From the NCBI GenBank assembly GCA_000310025.1, contig FN649744.1:1-64000 (forward strand): a stretch of 64,000 nt of DNA, read 5' to 3'. How positions within the stretch are numbered: position 1 is the stretch's first letter; each line of letters starts with the position of its first letter. Shown piece by piece: positions 32,788-44,185 of the stretch. The position numbers and the translations under genes are program-made. The notes beneath the pieces were generated by a model. It searched no databases. It was not told the DNA's origin and saw only the letters and a list, made by a program, of their open reading frames with translations. The DNA comes from Ectocarpus siliculosus. Its lineage: Eukaryota > Sar > Phaeophyceae > Ectocarpales > Ectocarpaceae.

Positions 32788-34592
32788 GGCCGGGGCATGG
32801 GGTGGGGGGGGGAGTGGAGAGAAATGTGTTTAGGTCTTGTCTCATGCTGTGCAAGCATATCAAGTAAGACCACGCCGTGTCTGCTCTATGCGGTCATCTG
32901 ATTAGCTATGCAGCATCTAATGAGCTACTCCGGAGTATGTAGCTGAATAGATTCTCCGGGTGTGGAATGCGTGCGGGGGTGGGTGTTCCCTGGGGGGGAG
33001 GCAAATGTATTCGTTCATCGTTTGCACAACATTGTACACGGGTTGGGTAAAATTCACGCTTAGGCGTATTGCAATCATCAATTAGCCTTAGCCTTCCACA
33101 AAGATCATAGAGGCGTGCGGTCGTGTCCCGTATGCTATGCTATGTGCAGCGAAGTTCTCGGGCTTGAACGTGTGTGTTGTAGTCGATTGGCAAAGAACAG
33201 CTCGTTCATCGGGACCAAAATCAGCAGCAGCACACCAAAATCGCGCCCCGTGACCAACAACGCGGTGTACATTCATTCAGCTCATGTTGAAGACGAAAAC
33301 CGGCCTTGTGATCCCACGAAACATCATGCCTGCCTCTCTTACCACGTCCGTCGCCTCAGCTGCCGATAGCTCGACGGGCACCGATGACAAGCGGTGTTTG
33401 GCAATCAGGCGTCTCGTCGAGGTCGGTGCAGCCCGTGGTCTGGGCGTTGCACAGAGCGTCCTGTTCCAGCCAACGCCAATATGGTATAAGCGAACAGCAA
33501 CGGAAGGAAGCGGGAAGAGTTAACCGAGTGAAACGGAATGCGAATGCAGGATTCCACCAGAAGAATACGTGTGTGTATTCCCACCCCCGGGTCCGGGGAC
33601 ATCTCCAGAATAGTGCTACACCCTACAAATTTCCAGTTTTCCCGTTTTCCCTTTTGACTCCGCCTTGCGAACGATGTATGCACCGGGCCAGCGGGCCGAT
33701 GTAGCGGGCGGAGTTCTGAAATTCAAATTGGCAGCACTTTTTATACGTCATCATTTCCAGTGGTGCTATCATGTTTCGTGCAGGCTACTGTCAGCCGTCT
33801 ACTCCCTACGTACATCACGGACATGAGCGATGGAGACCTACAGTATATACTGCTGTAGCGACATTGGCAACAACCAGAACCTCCCGTATTGATTGGATAC
33901 AGTAGCAGTGGCAAAGTCTTACCGCTACAACAGCATGAGTGTCCATCGCTCCGGCGGACACATGATACATGCACGCCCAGTTCGACAGACCGACCATCGT
34001 GCAACCAAAAGCACAACACGCGCAAATCCCCCCCCTTTCACAGACTCCATTCTCTACCCTTCAAGCTCTGCAGGGCAGTGGCACAGCTCTTGAGGAGATG
34101 CGGCACACTTTACTTACCGTCTAGCAAACGGTGCGCTTGTCAGACAGCGACGGGCATGGACCGGCCCGCGGAGGGCGAAGCCGGACGTACGGTGGCAAGA
34201 AACAGCGAGAAGCACTATAAGCAAGGATGGTCTCGCCATGATGGTTCAGCTAGTATAACTGGCGGCTTGCCAGTTAATGGGGAGCCACACGCGAGCGCAC
34301 AGCCAGCAGGGAGAGCTAGCTGCCTGCTGCTGTGGTGATCGCTGACAGTGCGGCGGCACCGGGCTGGGTACCTTGTCTTGGTTCCACTCTGCGGAGACCC
34401 CTAAAGCCAGCTCTCCTTGTTGTTGTGTTACCGCACCAGCCGCAGCAGCAGCCCACAGCAGCACCCCGCGGACGAGGTCGGCTAGGTAGATATCGATTTA
34501 AGCGTGTCCTAGGCTCTGGGAGGCTTGTGCATGTTCTCAGCCAAGAATAAACTCATACACCAGCCGGAGGACATCGAGAGAAGCGCTATAAA
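32788..34592. other. intergenic between divergent PLGG1-like and helicase genes
   Basis: No recognisable coding exon. The genes on either side point away from each other, so both promoters and any missing 5' exons of the PLGG1-like gene should lie here. Several ACTGCTGTA-type words occur (for example 33848-33858). Confidence 0.45.
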
Positions 34593-34593
34593 A

Positions 34594-34600
34594 AGGCCGA
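34594..34600 (+). promoter_or_regulatory. possible TATA box of the helicase gene
   Basis: GCGCTATAAAAAGGCC lies about 90 bases before the proposed start ATG at 34687. The spacing suits a short leader. The reading frame is also open upstream to an ATG at 34525, in which case this would be coding; hence low confidence. Confidence 0.3.
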
Positions 34601-34686
34601 GGATCCTAGGCGTCCCGGAACCAGCGGAGGAAGCGGCCGGCGAGTTGGTTCCTTGGGGCAGCGGGGGGCTGCAGGGGCTCCCAGCA

Positions 34687-37600
34687 ATGAGCTTGCAGTG
34701 CTCCGAGGTGAGAGGGAAGCTATCTGCCTGTTCGTTGGCGATCCAGTTCGCCCCGTCGCATCCGTGCATCCCGTCACCAAATCCAACCAACACATGTTGG
34801 GGGGGCGCCTGGGCCCAAAGACGGTTGCATGTACAACAGCAAGTCTGTGTAGACTAGAGCCCAGTGTGGTAAGCAAGTGTGTCTGTCCGCTGGCGGCGGT
34901 GTGTGTGCCTGCAGTAGCGGTGACGGCAATGGAAGCCACCTCTGCATTGAGTGGTAGGTACGTCCAAGCTCTCTCGCCGTCTTCGCCACACCAACATGGC
35001 AGCACTGCATCTCCACGAGTTGTAGCAGTACCCAATTCTCCTGGCTCTCTTTTTGCATGCACCGCAACCAACCTACCGGTTGCAGTCAGCAGTCGTGCCC
35101 AACCTCCCCACCCGCTATATACATCATGAAGCGTTGCAGTGCATCCACCTGCTGATGCCAATGTCCCCTCACTGCAACGGCGTACCAGTGCAAGGGCAAC
35201 ATATGCGACAACAGGGCTGGGGAAAACCTATCCTTCTGCGTCGATGGGACGTCCGTTCACCTGGTGATGGGGGCCAGCAAGGAGGGCCGTGAGGGTATCG
35301 GGTTCGGGATCAAGGAGGTGCCGGCCAACAAGCAGCCCAACGAAAACAACCCCTACAGATCGGTGGCGTACGTCCTCTGCGCGAACAGGCGCCCGGACAA
35401 TGGCCAGCAATGCAACAAGAAGGTGCGTCGTCGCGCTGATATCGCATGTCACTATTACTGCTGTAGTATTTGTCTCGTGTTCATACGGTAAATAAATCAT
35501 GATGAAATTTTGTGTTCCCGTGCAGCTATTGTTTGTGTAGCTATTGATGGAGCGAGGCTGTGGAACGAGTGTACGTACTGCTGTAGATTGTCAACGCTGA
35601 AAAAACGGCTAATGCGTAGTTGTACCGGTGAGGTAGCAAGTTCTGGAGAGACGTCACTGCTGTTGCAGGCAATAGCAGCACACCTTGGTTGCGCCAACAC
35701 TTCATTCGCGTGTGGCGTCGTATGTACCCGAGCATGAGCGAGAGATTACACCTCCTTTGCCAGTGCTCAAGTGTCTTCTATAACGTGGTACGCAGCAATT
35801 CCTCCTGTCGACACCCCTTCGAGACGTCAGTCACGGCTTCTTGTCTCTCTTGTGTGTACCGTATATGACACAAGATAACACACCCCCTGGCCCGATTTTT
35901 AAAGCTCGATTACTCGATGACGAAGAGGATACATAAACGAAATGATACATGTTCGAAAAGCTCCTAACAAGGCGGTTCCAACGCCGCCGTTTTCGGCGCT
36001 GTGAGTCTGCTGTTGAGAAATCGAGCTTTGAAAATCGGTCAAGGGGGTGTGTTATCTTGTGTCATATACGGTATGTGGGTCCTCCAAAGTCTCTCGCTGG
36101 TCGCCTCTGCGTGCGTGCTCACTGTGGGGTGGCAGGTCGGAGGGGTCAAGTGCTACCCTCCCCTGTCGGACAACCAGCTCATCTTCTTCCAGCAGAAGGC
36201 CCTCCTCGTCGACCACCAGCACCCCAAGAGCTGGAAGAACGTCCGCGAGAGCAGCCTCCGCAAGGTTAAGCTCCTCCCCGCAGGCAAGGAAGAGGAGGAA
36301 AGGCAGTTCACGCCTCGCCAGTGGCCGACGTTGAGGAAGAGTCTCGCGGGGGGGAGCAACGATCCTGGCCACGGCGGCGGTGGCATGGACCTGACGAGAA
36401 GCACCCCTCGCGGGTACCAGGAGGAGCTGTTCGACGCCGTGATGGAGTGCGAGCGCAACTCGTTGGTCTACCTGCCGACAGGCCTGGGAAAGACGCTGGT
36501 GGCGGCGATGGTTCTCAAGCAGATGCTGGACTGGAACCCGGAGAGGCAGGCGTACTTCTTGGTGGAGACCACCGCCCTGGCAATGCAACAGGTTTGGGTC
36601 TCGCTGTGCCCTTTTGTTTGTGTCCGTTTTGTTGTAGTTTTACGCGTGTACTGCGGGGCTGCGTAGCGGTATGTGATCCCGCGCGAGAACGCCGTGGGTA
36701 TAGGTAGGTGGGTTACCCCCGCTGCAGAAGCGTGACGTGCTATCACTCGGTGCGGTTGGCTCCCTTGGGTGGATGGTCCTTCGTAAGATCGAGTTATACT
36801 CCACCGAGGCCCACCAGCACCGGCCTCGCGCCGGGGCGCTAATGCTTGTGGTCGGCTTGTTCCTCGTCTGATATCAGTCTTCCCCCCCCCCACGCTTGAC
36901 CAAGGGGGCGAGAGAAGAGTGGAACTCGGGGATAATACACACACCTCTCCCCGTCCACAACACCATCAGCACAAAACATTAACCGCACATCAGGCACTAC
37001 TCTCATGGTTCTTAACCTCTTCCTTCCCTGCACGCCGTTTTCTTTCAGACGACCCGACTGCAAAACGAGCTAGGAGGGACGGTGAAGAAGATCGAGATGC
37101 TCGTGGGCTCGTCGTTGCAGGCTTTCGGCGGGAAACGAGGCAAGATCGACCATGGGCTGGTCAAGCTAGAGTGCGTCCGCGACGCTAACATCGTAGTGGC
37201 TACCGCCGGAGCGTTCGAGCACTGCATGTGCAAGGTGAACCCTTTAAATTCTAAATGGTTTGCTTGAGGTGTTTTTGACTTACTCGCTGTGTGTTGATTT
37301 CCTTTTTTTGTCCTGTTTTTTCCCGCTTCTCGCTACTCCGTCTTTTCCCGTTGATCTTGCTCCTTGAACGTCACCCCTTCTTTTGTTTTTCTCTCCATTC
37401 GTGGGTGTTTTTTTCCTTCCCACTTCCAGCTTTGGTGGGCACCTCTGTCGAGAACGATAGGCTCGTACATTTAGGTGCGGCACTTGTGAATCGTGTTTTG
37501 TTTTGTCATGGGTGCGCATGTTTCCCCTTTGTTTGTCCGTGTTAGATGACGACACTGCTGTTGCTATGGTCATCACTCTCCTCTCATTCCTCTTATGCTC

Positions 37601-40600
37601 ACGACCGATTTGTCGGTATTGCAGCGCTATATCGACCCGGACGCGATCTGCTGCGTGGTGCTAGACGAGGCACACCACTGCGGCAAGGAGCACCCTTTCA
37701 ACAGGGTGGCCAGGTCGTTCCTGACCATGAAGGCCTTCCCGTCAGTGCAGGCGACGCCCGACCGTGCCAAGGAGTTCCCGAAGGTGCACATGTACTGTGG
37801 TGTGTACTGTAGCCCACCCCCCTGGCGATGTCTAGCTACTGTGAAGACCCCTGCAAGCGACCCCACACTCAAGGCTTGTTGACAGCCGACCAACACTCAG
37901 TCAAGGCTTGTTTGCAGTCGACCCATACTCCAGGCTTGTTTACAGCCGACCAACACTCAGTCAAGGCTTGTTTGCAGTCGACCCATACTCCAGGCTTGTT
38001 TACAGCCGACCCACACTCGAGGCTTGTTTTCAGCGTATGGGAGTGAGTGAAAAGTATTCTAGCGTCGTAAGACGTGCGACACTGCTATCGCTCTCTTGGG
38101 GGTCTTCTTGTTCATATCTACCTTGCTGTATGTGTGATCCTCTGCCTGTCGGTACTGTCTGTCCCAGTACACAGCTGTCAGAATAACACAACGTTGCTTG
38201 TGAGGATATTTTTGTATGGGGGGGACGAGGAGAGCCTCATGAGGGAATGTGTACTTTTGTTGAAAATTCCTCAAAGACGTGTACGAGTAGTGTAGGAGAT
38301 GTGGCTGAAAAAATGCTAGAAACAGCAAACGTGTGTCGCTTCCGTCGGAGAACGTGGCCGGTTATGAAGCAAGAAACCTGGGCAAGCCCACTTCCCCATG
38401 CCGGTCGGTTCAACCGGGAACTAGCTTTCAAAATCAAGTCGAATGATCTCATTGCCTCGGAAGACTTAGTAGCTGAAGACCACACGCCGACCCGGCCCCG
38501 CCTACATGCCTCTGCCGACCGTGTCAGTTGGTCGCACTCACAGCGTCTCCTGCGGGCGAGTTGAGCGTGCATGACACCACCGTTAGGATCAACCAGCTGC
38601 TCGATAGGCTCGAGGCGGACCTAGCAGCGCCCGTGCAACATCTTCAGGAGGTGGGTGGTTGAATAGACTGGTGATGTTGATATTGAATTTTGTCGTCGTT
38701 GTTGTTTCTTCTGCTGTCGTTGTTGTTGGTGGTGGTGGTCGTGGTGGTGGTCGTGCTGCTGCTATGGTCGTTGCTGCTGTATTGTTGTTTGTTTTGTACC
38801 TTCGGAATGTGGTGTGTGAGCTTCAACGGCAAGTCATTTTTTTAGTGTCGCAGTCCAAAGCGAGACCGCCGGGGTAGCTTCGCTTTCAACAAGGGGGCTG
38901 GTTTTTCACCTGAGCTTCTTTTGTTTCTGCTATCGTGCCCGCAAACCATGAAGACTCTATTACAAGCGCATGATTTTTTCGTGACTCTACGTGCGCGACT
39001 TGGGCCTGGGTACGTCACATGCTTGGGCTTCAAGTTTTTCGGAAATAGAGATGCAGGCTGACAAAACCACACACGCCACATACTTTCCTGCATGTTTGCA
39101 AGCCCCTCCTTTTTAGCCATCGACTCTGTCACCTTTTCTACTTGCCCGATGTACTCTACACCCCACTCTCCTCTTTGTGTGCGAAATGTTCCTATCACGA
39201 AGACTTGTGGCCGTTGTCTCTACACACACAGTTTCGGTCGTGCACTCTCTTACCTATAGAATGCAATATATGTACGGTCAATGTGAGAACGAGAGATAAA
39301 GTTGATACGGTAGTACCTTGGGGGGGTGTCGTTGCAGTGAACATTCAGGGACGCCTGCCGGAGACTGGACGTGATTGAGCCCCACCCCCCGCGGCTGTTG
39401 TCCCCTGACCCTCTTCTCATGTTCTCACACACAGGTGAAGAGTCTCACGCCCTCCGTGGACCTGGAGCTCCTGAACGTTACCGCCACCGCTTCGGAGACG
39501 ACCCTGCTGGGCTGCCTCGAGAAGCTGGTGCTCTCGCGCTTGGTAGGGCTCGCCCCCGAGGCCTCCGAAGCACACGCTCAGGCGCAGAGCCTCCTCGACA
39601 GCCTGGGCGGTCGGATGAGGGGCGCCGCTGCCGCAGCCACGGCTAGCACCGCCGCCGGAGCCGACGTGCCGCGCAAGGACGACGCGTGGGTGTTCCCGAA
39701 CAAGTTCTTCACGGCGCTGTGCCAGCGCGCGCTGTCTGCGGGCGGCGCGGAGCAGAGAGAGGGCTGGTGGGAGTCCGACGGTACTGTCATGGACGAGGGC
39801 AGCGGCGGCGGCGGCGGGGGGGGGGGCGGTGAGGCCTCCCAGTTGCACAGCCTGATGAACTTGTCGTTCGCGGTGGACGAGATCGGCGGCGAGGCCATTT
39901 GGCAGAGAGCGCTGGAAGAGCTCGACAACGGGTGGACCAGCGGCAGCAGCAGTAGTAGCGGAGAGGGGAACGATTTTAGCGACCCGGAGCTCGAGGAGAC
40001 TATCGGCGTGCTCAAGGAAAACCTCTCGGCCGTAGCGACGGTGTCGGGCTCGGACGGCGGGAGCGCAGCAGCCTCGGGGGGCGATGCGGTCAGGAGGGCC
40101 GGCGGATCCAAGCTCGCGAAGATTGCCTGGCTGTTGGAGGAGCACAAGCGCGCTTGCGACGCGTCGGGCAAGAGATTTTCGGCGCTGGTGTTCGTGTCCA
40201 GGCGAGAGCTGGCGCTGGCTACCCCGGCCATGCTGGAGGAGGCCAAGCCGTTCGTGAAGGCGCAGTCCATCGTCGGGCTGTCGGAGATGACCCTGAACCA
40301 GCAGCGCCGCGCGCTCGCCTCGTTCCAGAACGGTCTGAAGAACGTTCTGGTGTCGACGTCTGTGTGCGGGGAGGGGATCGACGTGCCGGCCTGCGCGCTG
40401 GTGGTGTGCGCAAGCCTCCCCAGCAGCGGGACGGAGCTTGTTCAGCTGCGGGGTCGCATTCGCAGCAAGGAGAATGAGTGCAGGTGAGCGAGCGGCAGCA
40501 GACCAGAGGGGTTGGAGTCGAGGCCCCGGTTGTTGGGAACAAACGCACAATCCGTTGCAGGGGCAAACCTCCGGCCTTCCCCTCACAATAGTGTGGTTCG

Positions 40601-41074
40601 TTTGCTTTTATGGCGCCAAACCGTCATCATACTTGTCTGTAACGTTGTGGTAAGAGATGAACGCAAGCTCTAGTTAAGGCGGTGGTGTCCTTTTTTATCG
40701 AGATATTGTATTCATGTGTGTCGCCTCAACATGATGTAATACACCACGTGGTGCTACTACGGATGGGTTACTGACGTGGCACTGCTGCTGCTCTTCCTGG
40801 TGCTATTTTTGCAACTCCCGATGCTCCCTATTTCGGCCGCCGCCTCTGCTTGCTGGCTAAGGTTCGTCGGTCTCACAAGGACCGCAGGAGCCGCCGACAA
40901 GGCCCACGTCAAGAGCATCTGCTTGCGCGAGCAAAACATGCTGGAGGCCATCCGATCCCTCTCCGGCGGCGGTAGCAGTGGCAGTGACGTCTTCCGTGCC
41001 AAGGCCGGAAGCAAGTTTGAAGGCGGCGATAGCAGCTCAACAACTTCCGGCCGTGGCGACATAGACCGTGATTC

Positions 41075-41110
<36 letters not shown>

Positions 41111-42699
41111 TAGCAAGGCGGCTACCGCACAAACCCCGTCAACCAGTGCAGCCAGCAACAGGGCAAAGAGACACGCCGCACGGGCAGGCACCGGCGGCGG
41201 CGGCAGCACTAATAGAACCAACAGGAGCTCCCCGATATCGCCGAACTCCGACGCGACAGCGGAGACGTCTTTCTCAGAAACGTCCTCCATCGCGACGAGC
41301 GCATCGACCCTCTCCGGAGGGGGCAGCGGAATCGTTCTCGATGGGGCGGCGGCTGCGGCGACGGCGGCGGCGACGGCATCGTTGGCGGGGGCTCCGCGGA
41401 CCGGAGTCCCCGGTGTGTGCCCTCCGGTCAACGTTCCAACGTCTTCGGGCTCCGCGGCATCGCCATCGCAAACGGTGACCCGTGCGCAGGCCAGAGCTGC
41501 CCAGACATCCCCGGGGGCCCCGTCGCCGACGGCCGTAGCTCCCAGTGACCCCCACCCCCCCGGGAAAGAGCTTGCGCCTGCCGACGAGGTTACCGCACCC
41601 ACCGCGAAGGGGAAGGAGGGAAGGGGGGGTGGAGTCGCACCAGAAGCGGCGACGGCGCAGCCGGACGACAACCCGTGGAAGGTCAGCCTGCCGGTGACTC
41701 TGAGCCCGGCGGCAAGGAGATACGCGGCCACGTACCTCGCGACCTGCGTGCGGCAGGCGCTACAGAGGAACCCGGACCAGATGGCCAGGTGAGATTTGTA
41801 GCGTTTTTTTTAGTGCGGCGGCGGCGGCGGCGGCGGCGGATCGAGTACGTTGATCGTTTGAGCAGGCGTAGCCAGCCCCCCGCCCACCCCCCACACCCTT
41901 GGTTTGCTTCTCGAACGCGTCCTCCCGCTGCTGGGGAGGTTTGGTCAGTCTCTTTTTTTTGCTGACACTCGACGAGGGTGGTGGCGCGATGTTTTTTGTT
42001 TTTTGTGTCGTGTGTTGGGCCAGGCGCGCTTCAAATCGACCTAGTCCCGGTCGGGATTCATTGGGCCTTCTATTTCCTAGGCCTTCCTTGGTACATGTTC
42101 TCCCCCACACACCGGTTTTTGGACACCAGCTTGTCGATGTTGGGCTGTATCTGGAGCTCCGCGCATCTGCCACATGCGTCTGCGGAGAACATGAATTGAA
42201 AATACTGTCAATTCTATTTTACCCACGGAAAGTAGATAGATACACAGGCGGGAGAGAGAGAGAACTCGAAACGATTCGTTCTCACGGGAAAGGCTCGCCA
42301 TTGTTCAGACCTGTCGGAAGTTACACCTCACCCCCTCCCCCTCCTCCTCCAATGGTTTAATGACTACGGAATGCACGACTATGAGTACCCCCCCCCCCCC
42401 CCCCCCCCCCCTCCTCCTGCAGGTGCACGCTCAACTCCGCCGCCCAGCTGGCGCAGACGATCAAGCCCGTGTTCGAGTACGACGAGAGGAAGTTGAAAGG
42501 GTCTGGCGTCAACACCTGTTTCTTTGAGGCTCGGTGCATCGTTACCTCCCGCCTTGAAGAGCTCGCCGGCCTCATCCTCGTCAAGGAGGCCAAGGGCAGC
42601 TCCATCAAGGCCGCCAGGGAGGGGGCCGCCGTCAAGGTCAGGCAGTACCTGCTTTCCAAGGACATGTCCAAGGTGCAGCCGCTCGGCTCCGGCCCGTAG
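34687..42699 (+). CDS. Dicer/RIG-I-type superfamily-2 RNA helicase with C-terminal dsRBD-like domain
   Basis: Nine exons, all phases joining: 34687-34707, 35189-35422, 36136-36591, 37049-37234, 37625-37783, 38528-38650, 39435-40483, 40862-41788, 42423-42699 (about 1143 residues). Residues 1-110 hold paired cysteines (LQCSECKGNIC, later VLCANRRPDNGQQC), probably a zinc fold. Helicase motifs follow: RGYQEELFDAV, Walker A PTGLGKT (~199-205), DEAHHCGKEHPFNRV (~313), LTASPAG (~356), STSVCGEGIDVP (~700) and QLRGRIRSKE (~730). An insert rich in Ser, Gly and Ala (~440-590) and a Ser/Pro-rich linker (~780-1020) are present. The last ~75 residues, ending GSSIKAAREGAAVKVRQYLL, look like a dsRNA-binding or Dicer-dimerisation fold. 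The motif set places it with helicases that act on double-stranded RNA. It has no RNase III, PAZ or CARD, so it is not a full Dicer. An upstream ATG at 34525 is a possible alternative start. Confidence 0.88.
35859..36071. mobile_element. 213-bp MITE in helicase intron 2, TA target duplication
   Basis: Inverted repeats of about 53 bases form the ends: CCGTATATGACACAAGATAA at 35859 and its exact complement ending at 36071, continuing through a CACCCCC block and a CGATTTTTAAAGCTCGATT block with few mismatches. TA flanks both sides (35857-35858, 36072-36073), as expected of Tc1/mariner relatives. It ends 64 bases before the exon 3 acceptor and has no coding capacity. Confidence 0.9.
37850..38036. 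repeat. ~30-bp minisatellite in helicase intron 5
   Basis: Six units alternate between AACACTCAGTCAAGGCTTGT-type and CATACTCCAGGCTTGTTTAC-type, giving a ~60-base higher-order repeat. Units end in ACAGCCGACC or GCAGTCGACC. The repeated pyrimidine-ACAG endings resemble splice acceptors. The surrounding helicase exons (ending 37783, starting 38528) join in phase without it. Confidence 0.88.
42351..42422 (+). repeat. R1 fragment and poly-C forming the last helicase 3' splice site
   Basis: The words ATGGTTTAATGACTACGG and ATGCACGACTATGAGTAC match the R1 repeat, followed by ~23 C and then CTCCTCCTGCAG. The final helicase exon begins immediately after (42423). The R1-derived C tract therefore acts as the polypyrimidine tract. 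Confidence 0.8.
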
Positions 42700-44185
42700 A
42701 GGACAGGCGGCAGCGGTGGTGGAGATAATGTTTCGTGGCGTATTGTTAGGGTGTGATGATGAGGGTTAGTTCCTGTGTCATGCTTTGGCGCGGGGAAGGG
42801 ATGAGACGAGCCCCGAAATTTGTGAGGGAACCCCTGCGGTCGAGTTGTGTGTGTGGTATCGTGTTTGTCGGAAAGGGGTTGGGTCTGATTTCCCGGAATC
42901 GCTCGTGTTGAAACAGTTTTTTGCGGTGTGTGGTGAACGGTACGGCAGTAGTAATCCAAGAGCGGATGGTGACCCGGAACAGCGGTGGACGTACTTTCAT
43001 GTAAGACTTTTGCCTTGTTTCTGGGAGTAATTCCTGTTTGGTAAACAGGCGGTGTGATGATGTCGTGACGGTTTTGTTTCTTCGCCAGTAGTATGCGGGG
43101 TGCGCTGATGACGGCAGGTGCGTCGCCACAACGTCAACGCCCGCATGCATGCCCGGACACGTTTTTGATTGAGGCCGAAAGGTGCTGGGCTAACTGGCGT
43201 GAATATTTTTCCAAGAAGGGGACGGAAGGAGCCAGATAGAGTACGTTTTCTTGAAGCATTGAAGAACTTTCGACGGCCGTTTTTCAACCGTTACGGTGTT
43301 CGTGAAAAACGAGACGTGGTTGTGTAGTAGACGCGTGTCACCAGCGAGCTCATGTTTTGCCGAGAAAGCGGCCTGTGGTTTATCGATGGTCGTTCGGTTA
43401 CAGCGGTGCCTAGGGCCGGGGTAGGGTGTGCGAGATGTTGCCCCACGGGTGGAGCGGGGAGCTGCTGCAAGCAGATTCTCCTCCTGTACGGGATCACTTG
43501 GAAGAAACCGTTGGACGTGTTTTCCTTTCGATTTTTGCTCGATTTTTCTGCTGTGGATGTGCTTTGCTGTGCGGGGGGGGTACGAAACGTGTCGTTTGGT
43601 CGTGTGTTGCGGGTGGAGGTGGGGGTCTGCCGCAGCACAAGTGTATACCGCCATTTCGTTTCAGGGGAATGCCTTCGATGTTACAATCACCGTCGTTTCA
43701 ACCTTTTTAGTTCTGGTCTTGGCGCTCTTGTGTGCTGTTTCACCGGTTCGCGGTATCTCTTCTCTTCTCTCGTTGCAGGTGTATATGTGCGCGTGTGAAC
43801 TATAACTATTGGGCGATCATAGGTAACAGTACCATCATGAAGGCCAGTTGTCCTTGAGGGAGCGTGTCGTGGTGAGGTCAAGGTTGGGTGAATTCCGCCG
43901 GACGCTGGACTTGTCCTCGTGGCTTCCTACGCTCTTCTTTTTGTTTTTTGTTTTTTTCTGTTTGTGTGTTCTTGCTTGTTGCCTCTTCTTTTGAGAGTAG
44001 AGCGTGGCCGGGCGGATGGGTCATCCTCCCGCTCCCAGTTGGAGCTAAGACTCTGGGGGCTATACAGTGTTCGATGGCTTTTTCTCGCTCGTGCCAAATG
44101 TGTATTGGCGTTACGGCACCTCGTTCTGTTGCGCTGGTACATGGGTGGACAAAAATTACGGGGGTCTTGCCAACCACGGTAAAAT
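42700..44185. other. helicase 3' region, no further gene seen
   Basis: T- and G-rich sequence after the helicase stop. Frames up to ~150 codons (for example 43352-43798) are Cys/Val/Phe-rich with no domain and read as noise. Confidence 0.5.

What the first reader, a model, noticed from the sequence alone, without database searches (positions are those of the whole stretch)
34687..42699. Dicer/RIG-I-type helicase without nuclease, with N-terminal Cys-rich and C-terminal dsRBD-like domains
The sequence shows a full set of helicase motifs (PTGLGKT, DEAH, LTASPA, QLRGRIRS) with a cysteine-rich N-terminus and a dsRBD-like end, and none of the RNase III, PAZ or CARD domains. This order is neither a standard Dicer nor an animal RIG-I-like receptor. 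It could be a stand-alone dsRNA sensor or a Dicer partner in an algal RNA-silencing or antiviral pathway. The function is inference.
Basis: partly seen in the sequence, partly recalled or inferred. Interest (0 to 1): 0.8.

Follow-up and report, generated by a model that had tools for sequence, protein, structure and literature searches.

The report
Brown-algal RIG-I/Dicer-type RNA helicase
A brown seaweed gene encodes an RNA helicase of the same broad kind as the virus sensor RIG-I and the silencing enzyme Dicer, but with an RNA-end-binding type of domain moved to the front and no cutting domain, which suggests a separate, little-known branch of RNA-sensing proteins.

Summary
In Ectocarpus siliculosus a nine-exon gene, 34687-42699 (+), encodes 1143 residues: a Cys-rich N-terminus, a complete RIG-I/Dicer-type helicase, a long linker and a dsRBD-like tail. 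No RNase III, PAZ, CARD or RdRP domain was found. Relatives occur in other brown algae; in this genome the gene is single-copy at the sensitivity used.

New here: the Cys-rich N-terminus looks like a divergent relative of the RIG-I C-terminal (RNA-end-binding) domain. The same domain sits at the same N-terminal place in helicase-RdRP fusion proteins, one of them named (green alga Bryopsis). The helicase groups with those and with zinc-finger helicases, and membership in RIG-I-like receptors is rejected; Dicer or FANCM/Hef placement is not firmly excluded.

Ectocarpus has RdRP and Argonaute genes elsewhere, and a separate Dicer gene that appears to carry its own helicase, so this is not a split Dicer. 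Best guess: an ATP-driven helicase recognising dsRNA or RNA ends that works in trans with the RdRP/Dicer silencing machinery. Binding, ATPase activity and partners are untested. New variant of a known kind.

The parts
34687..34707 (+). exon 1 (MSLQCSE; first Cys of the N-terminal domain)
   Evidence: P0002, P0004, P0005 begin at the same place
35189..35422 (+). exon 2, N-terminal RIG-I-CTD-like domain (residues 8-85)
36136..36591 (+). exon 3: end of the N-terminal domain (to about residue 125), helicase motif I PTGLGKT at 36475-36495
   Evidence: motif position read
37049..37234 (+). exon 4, RecA1
37625..37783 (+). exon 5, motif II DEAH at 37664-37675
38528..38650 (+). exon 6, motif III LTASPA at 38537-38554
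39435..40483 (+). exon 7: helical insertion (Hel2i-like) and RecA2; Helicase_C 40164-40460; motif VI QLRGRIRS 40443-40466
   Evidence: VIA alignment of the Scytosiphon model to the RIG-I helicase
40862..41788 (+). exon 8: pincer-like helices then a long low-complexity linker
   Evidence: helices seen in the Scytosiphon model
42423..42699 (+). exon 9: dsRBD-like tail and stop (dsrm match 42445-42648, sub-threshold)
34531..34686 (+). upstream in-frame extension used by the public model (MFSAKNK...); seen only in Ectocarpus rows here, may be 5' UTR

Best explanation
It is an active-looking dsRNA-type ATPase/helicase of the RIG-I/Dicer superfamily with an RNA-end/dsRNA-binding domain of the RIG-I-CTD kind placed before the helicase, and a second, dsRBD-like domain on a flexible tether. 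Likely mechanism: the N-terminal domain and dsRBD recognise dsRNA or RNA ends; the helicase clamps the duplex and uses ATP to translocate or proof-read; the protein hands the RNA to the separately encoded RdRP and Dicer/Argonaute machinery. It would do in trans what its fused relatives do in cis with RdRP, comparable to C. elegans DRH-3 in the RdRP complex. Shown here: gene structure, domain order, intact motifs, profile-level similarity of the N-terminal domain, one copy at the sensitivity used, Dicer/RdRP/AGO genes elsewhere. Inferred: RNA binding, ATPase activity, RdRP/Dicer partnership, antiviral or transposon role.
Against: No brown-algal N-terminus matches PF11648 directly (0 of 4). Against RLR CTDs alone the score is weak (21.6, P 0.005, shuffle maximum 18.9 of 150); against the first set of 10 RDR N-termini P 0.006, against the 12-row set P 7e-5 by hhalign but only 0.3 by hmmsearch. 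P0010 does not match (9.1). The RDR N-termini also match Yippee-Mis18 in 6 of 6 (best 1.4e-5), and P0026 as a whole protein matches only that of the two. The domain was modelled (pLDDT 62-91) but its fold was not compared with solved structures. No RNA, interaction or expression data. The RdRP link rests on architecture of relatives, all but Bryopsis from unnamed sources. Dicer placement: p-AU 0.0103 with 80 rows but 0.294 with 58 rows; FANCM/Hef side not rejected, p 0.131.
Confidence: 0.45

Rival explanations
1. Stand-alone dsRNA sensor or Dicer partner (DRH-1-like): it feeds viral dsRNA to Dicer, or signals, without any RdRP link.
For: Helicase resembles the RIG-I, LGP2, MDA5, DRH-1 and Dicer-2 helicases. 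The Ectocarpus survey listed no HYL1, TRBP, Loqs, R2D2 or RDE-4 homologue, and a PACT hit that was not reciprocal (PMC4513859 Table 2, passages), so a dsRBD-bearing partner is not known. Fucus has viral small RNAs.
Against: Nearest domain architecture is RdRP-linked; Ectocarpus Dicer seems to have its own helicase.
Confidence: 0.3
2. A derived Dicer that lost PAZ and RNase III and acquired a zinc domain independently.
For: With 58 rows and long branches removed, brown + Dicer as one clade is not rejected (p-AU 0.294).
Against: Rejected with 80 rows (p 0.0103, held together with the Dicers and three unlabelled rows); free trees put it with RDR-helicases (86/86; 94/82); shares the N-terminal domain with RDR-helicases and with no Dicer in the set.
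Confidence: 0.12
3. A housekeeping RNA or DNA helicase (FANCM/Hef-like or RNA-processing) without a silencing role.
For: Placement on the FANCM/Hef side is not rejected (p-AU 0.131); FANCM and Hef structures are also among the good matches.
Against: Best PDB sequence and structure matches are Dicer/RLR helicases; no ERCC4/HhH domains; RIG-I-CTD-like and dsRBD-like flanks point to RNA duplexes.
Confidence: 0.13

Closest known systems
Helicase-RdRP (RDR) fusion proteins (oomycetes, Dictyostelium, Hydra, Nematostella: PMC4791657, passages; here Bryopsis P0145 and unnamed P0012-P0016, P0018-P0021, P0024, P0026, P0142)
   Same: Same order at the N-terminus: RIG-I-CTD-like zinc domain (tested here only for the P rows, not for the organisms of that paper), then Dicer/RIG-I-type helicase; helicases group together (94/82).
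   Different: No RdRP domain; long linker and dsRBD-like tail instead. RdRP is encoded elsewhere in Ectocarpus, without a helicase in the 18-23 kb upstream that was searched.
RIG-I-like receptors / DRH-1, DRH-3
   Same: Helicase with insertion domain; CTD-type zinc domain present.
   Different: CTD-like domain is N- not C-terminal; no CARDs; dsRBD-like tail; joint clade with RLRs rejected (p 0.004; no C. elegans DRH row was chosen for the tree).
Dicer
   Same: Helicase type; dsRBD-like C-terminus.
   Different: No DUF283, PAZ or RNase III match; zinc domain before the helicase; a separate Dicer gene exists in the genome.
C2H2-zinc-finger helicases (P0011, P0017, P0023, P0101; the two named ones are molluscs)
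   Same: Sister helicase core in the 80-row tree (99/97); zinc fingers ahead of the helicase.
   Different: Tandem C2H2/U1-like fingers, not a CTD-like domain; no dsrm match in the two scanned, P0011 and P0023.

Membership tests
RIG-I-like receptor | N-terminal CARDs | tested here: not met
   No CARD family listed, limit E 10
RIG-I-like receptor | Regulatory zinc domain C-terminal to the helicase | tested here: not met
   CTD-like domain lies at residues 1-125, before the helicase; tail is dsRBD-like
RIG-I-like receptor | Helicase core in the RLR clade | tested here: not met
   p-AU 0.004 against brown + RLR
RIG-I-like receptor | SF2 helicase with helical insertion and pincer | tested here: met
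Dicer | Two RNase III domains | tested here: not met
   No Pfam RNase III in the protein; no window ORF of 20 aa or more matches a Dicer RNase III profile at E <= 1
Dicer | PAZ/platform and DUF283 | tested here: not met
   Not among the families listed, limit E 10
Dicer | Helicase core in the Dicer clade | tested here: inconclusive
   Rejected with 80 rows (p 0.0103), not with 58 rows (p 0.294)
Helicase-RdRP fusion (RDR-helicase) | N-terminal RIG-I-CTD-like domain before the helicase | tested here: met
   hhalign P 8e-6 and hmmsearch 6.4e-5 against the merged profile; no direct PF11648 hit. That the domain is a rule for this family was seen only in the rows held here
Helicase-RdRP fusion (RDR-helicase) | RdRP domain in the same protein | tested here: not met
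   No PF05183; genomic RdRPs lie on C17 and C474
Helicase-RdRP fusion (RDR-helicase) | Helicase core in the RDR-helicase clade | tested here: inconclusive
   94/82 together with zinc-finger helicases; brown + RDR-helicase without them p 0.023; 86/86 when they are left out
FANCM/Hef | Helicase core in the FANCM/Hef clade | tested here: inconclusive
   Free tree excludes it, but p-AU 0.131
FANCM/Hef | ERCC4 nuclease/HhH region | tested here: not met
   Not listed; some FANCM proteins lack it, so of limited weight (recalled)
DRH-3-like RdRP-complex helicase (analogy) | Physical association with RdRP | not testable with these tools
   Needs pull-down
dsRBD protein | dsRNA-binding fold | tested here: inconclusive
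   dsrm below cut-off; alpha-beta-beta-beta-alpha predicted at pLDDT 35-58

The most novel reading that the evidence does not exclude
There is a third, non-animal branch of RIG-I/Dicer-type helicases whose RIG-I-like RNA-end-sensing domain sits in front of the helicase. It is ancient and linked to RdRP-based silencing (fused to RdRP in a green alga and other, unnamed lineages); brown algae freed it from RdRP and added a dsRBD, giving a stand-alone, RIG-I-like RNA sensor that directs RdRP/Dicer silencing. RIG-I's RNA-sensing module would then predate animals and come from RNA silencing.
Probability: 0.35. Interest if true: 0.8.

Novelty: new variant of a known kind. Interest (0 to 1): 0.6.

Why it matters
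How RIG-I-type self/non-self RNA sensing arose, and how brown algae (an independent multicellular lineage with miRNAs and viral small RNAs but no known dsRBD partner of Dicer) recognise dsRNA, are both open. A RIG-I-CTD-like domain at the front of RdRP-linked helicases, and of a free helicase in brown algae, would tie the animal virus-sensor module to RdRP-based silencing. The gene looks single-copy in a laboratory brown alga, so it can be tested.

Tried and rejected
Helicase substitute for a helicase-less Dicer: first supported when the stretches then held around the RNase III and RdRP loci showed no helicase, then rejected when 20 kb more upstream on C21 showed helicase exons on the same strand in the right order.

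RPA-type zinc ribbon for the N-terminus: an idea by eye, without Pfam or PDB support. DUF6108 (0.024 in 1 of 4) is taken as chance.

PAZ search of the genome found nothing, but the controls were silent too, so it says nothing. RIG-I_C-RD searched in the genome exon by exon gave one sub-threshold place elsewhere, E 0.86; the domain is split over three exons here.

Fold search with the 458-residue model: the 50 listed VIA rows cover residues 181-434, the helicase part, so the N-terminal fold was not compared (Foldseek, gives no ranges).

Ten long ORFs elsewhere in the window, chosen from the 53 listed: no Pfam match at E <= 0.001.

Rows dropped: the tree used 80 of 252 proteins held (I chose 84; P0008, P0010 and P0069 left out by me, P0022 lacked the C part). 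The 58-row tree left out the zinc-finger helicases, eight long or unplaced rows and ten further FANCM or unlabelled rows. RLR CTD profile: 17 of 29 RLR rows (12 not caught by my pattern). N-terminal brown profile: 4 of the 10 brown rows; P0010 tried in addition (score 34.4). The hmmsearch listing shows only the first domain of each protein, apart from the seven brown rows that I named.

Full report
What is there. The window is C19 of a 189-Mb assembly. A public Ectocarpus siliculosus protein, 'DEAD box helicase', matches the spliced product (P0001, 100% over the best local alignment, 69% of the query). Nine exons with GT-AG introns give 1143 residues without a stop. The Scytosiphon relative and two listed without organism names (P0004, P0005) start at the same MSLQC; the divergent P0010 does not. 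Six relatives that carry the tail (P0002, P0003, P0004, P0005, P0007, P0008) continue through K[VTA]xx[YF]LL, against the public Ectocarpus model, which splices away there; P0006, P0009 and P0010 do not have it. Named brown-algal sources: Scytosiphon, Ectocarpus fasciculatus, Hapterophycus, Pylaiella, Discosporangium and Ectocarpus sp. 12. Besides Ectocarpus itself only P0002, P0004 and P0005 show the whole architecture; the others are partial, divergent or lack the zinc domain (P0007, P0008). The whole-genome search with P0001 lists 12 matches at E <= 0.001: ten in this gene, one exon of the Dicer helicase on C21 (1.1e-5) and a 27%-identity stretch on C14 (1e-3): one copy at this sensitivity.

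N-terminal domain. Six cysteines (5, 8, 24, 71, 82, 91) are kept in P0001, P0002, P0004 and P0005; P0010 keeps four of them. Pfam and PDB give nothing for the brown-algal sequences themselves. Helicase-RdRP fusion proteins among the homologues carry an N-terminal CxxC...CxxC domain at the same place. Cut out, those domains match PF11648 RIG-I_C-RD in 6 of 6 (the one shown is above cut-off, 27.7 vs 25.6 bits; best E 3.5e-7) and Yippee-Mis18, a zinc family of the same fold (recalled), also in 6 of 6 (best 1.4e-5). As whole proteins PF11648 is at 2.4e-4 in P0020, 0.14 in P0012, and not listed in P0026. Bryopsis is at 0.0018. Their profile finds MDA5 in its CTD at 5.4e-5, then ankyrin (0.023, taken as chance) and DHX58 (0.14). 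A profile of 12 such N-termini matches 17 RLR CTDs at P 7e-8. Against the merged profile the brown-algal domain scores 35.8 (P 8e-6, probability 84%), compared with at most 20.8 in 200 column shuffles, 13.8 reversed and 12.4 in 15 other segments. In plain hmmsearch over the 252 proteins held, the same profile picks the N-terminus of P0001 at 6.4e-5, P0143 2.1e-6, P0002 4.5e-4, P0005 0.0035, P0004 0.03, P0010 9.1; the only other row outside RLRs and RDR-helicases in the listing is an archaeal-type helicase at 0.28. Against RLR CTDs alone, or RDR N-termini alone by hmmsearch, the signal is weak. With RDR-helicases in the alignment, AlphaFold2 gives the Ectocarpus sp. 12 fragment P0143 a mostly-beta domain at pLDDT 62-91 (residues 31-150). 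I read it as a divergent RIG-I-CTD-like domain; my confidence is about 0.8.

Tail. A low-complexity linker is followed by alpha-beta-beta-beta-alpha at pLDDT 35-58. dsrm is below cut-off and the profile finds no PDB chain at E <= 1. 'dsRBD-like' is fair, 'dsRBD' not proved.

Phylogeny. With 80 helicase cores (503 columns, IQ-TREE LG+C20) the seven brown-algal rows form one clade (100/100), join four zinc-finger helicases (99/97), then nine RDR-helicases (94/82), apart from RLRs and FANCM/Hef. AU tests: brown + Dicer (with three unlabelled rows) 0.0103; brown + RLR 0.004 and brown + RDR-helicase without zinc-finger helicases 0.023; brown + FANCM/Hef 0.131, not rejected. With 58 rows, brown + RDR-helicase is 86/86 and brown + Dicer is not rejected (0.294). 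The brown branch is long (1.3). RLR membership is rejected; the rest is a lean, to which the shared N-terminal domain adds weight.

Genome surroundings. The RNase III family hits C15 and C21. In the 20 kb held, C15 shows one RNase III-type exon. C21 shows one clear RNase III domain over two exons (7.6e-13 and 1.1e-5) and a weak second one (0.0069). From 12 to 23 kb upstream of the weak one, on the same strand, lie helicase C (Pfam 1.5e-9) and DExH (4.2e-5, below cut-off) exons. I read this as a Dicer with its own helicase, assuming one gene. RdRP is on C17 and, with the same exon pattern, C474; no helicase was found in 22.7 kb upstream on C17 or 17.9 kb on C474, which does not exclude one further off. 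Six Piwi exon matches lie within 4.6 kb on C2. Tarver et al. list a Dicer, an Argonaute and two RDRs in Ectocarpus and no HYL1, TRBP, Loqs, R2D2 or RDE-4 homologue (PMC4513859, passages).

Mechanism. See Best explanation. The RdRP partnership is inferred from fused relatives and the DRH-3 precedent (PMC6351104, passages); an antiviral role is made plausible by 21-nt 5'U viral small RNAs in Fucus (PMC6085071, abstract and passages).

Literature. Helicase-RDR fusions and their separation from Dicer helicases are published (PMC4791657, passages; 'RIG-I' does not occur in its text). Searches for RIG-I with Ectocarpus and helicase (3 papers), RIG-I with 'brown alga' (46 papers, 15 listed), and other combinations (34 papers, 20 listed; 6; others listed) showed no title or abstract start on this protein or on a RIG-I-type domain in front of RdRP helicases. 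Only listings, abstract starts and, for a few papers, passages were seen (PMC12768352, PMC10328071 and PMC12876857 also by passages), and the library is open-access only.

Noticed in passing
P0007 (Pylaiella) and P0008 (eukprot, no organism shown): Paralogue-like relatives lack the zinc domain and instead begin with a hydrophobic stretch ending ...TCAFLTH / ...ARGFLVSR, resembling a bipartite plastid presequence (motif recalled, not tested).
   Followed up: no
P0008, P0010: Helicase motif I degenerate (PTASASRT, PPGTALGRT) and other motifs changed, so some copies may be ATPase-dead.
   Followed up: partly
G000:C17:1194778-1201306 (-) and G000:C474:77892-84393 (+): Two RdRP loci with the same exon pattern and near-equal scores, each with stop codons inside some matched stretches: recent duplicate, alternative haplotype or assembly copy.
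   Followed up: no
window 37865-38020: Tandem repeats with a period of about 60 bases (...AAGGCTTGTTTGCAGTCGACCCATACTCC...) inside the intron after exon 5, seen by eye.
   Followed up: no
P0060, P0068 (Batillaria RLRs), P0061 (unnamed RLR): Their CTDs have an enlarged second zinc knuckle (C-x9-C) much like the brown-algal C-x10-C.
   Followed up: no
P0148 (unnamed metagenome protein, 1162 aa): Another nuclease-less Dicer-type helicase with two dsrm stretches (1.1e-9) and a Cys-rich N-terminus that looks different; falls near Dicers in the tree.
   Followed up: partly
window 42637 to 43779: The public Ectocarpus model splices from the dsRBD exon to 43779 and so truncates the domain; relatives contradict it.
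   Followed up: partly
G000:C21:2820000-2851000 (-): Ectocarpus Dicer gene appears to span about 30 kb with helicase and RNase III exons.
   Followed up: partly
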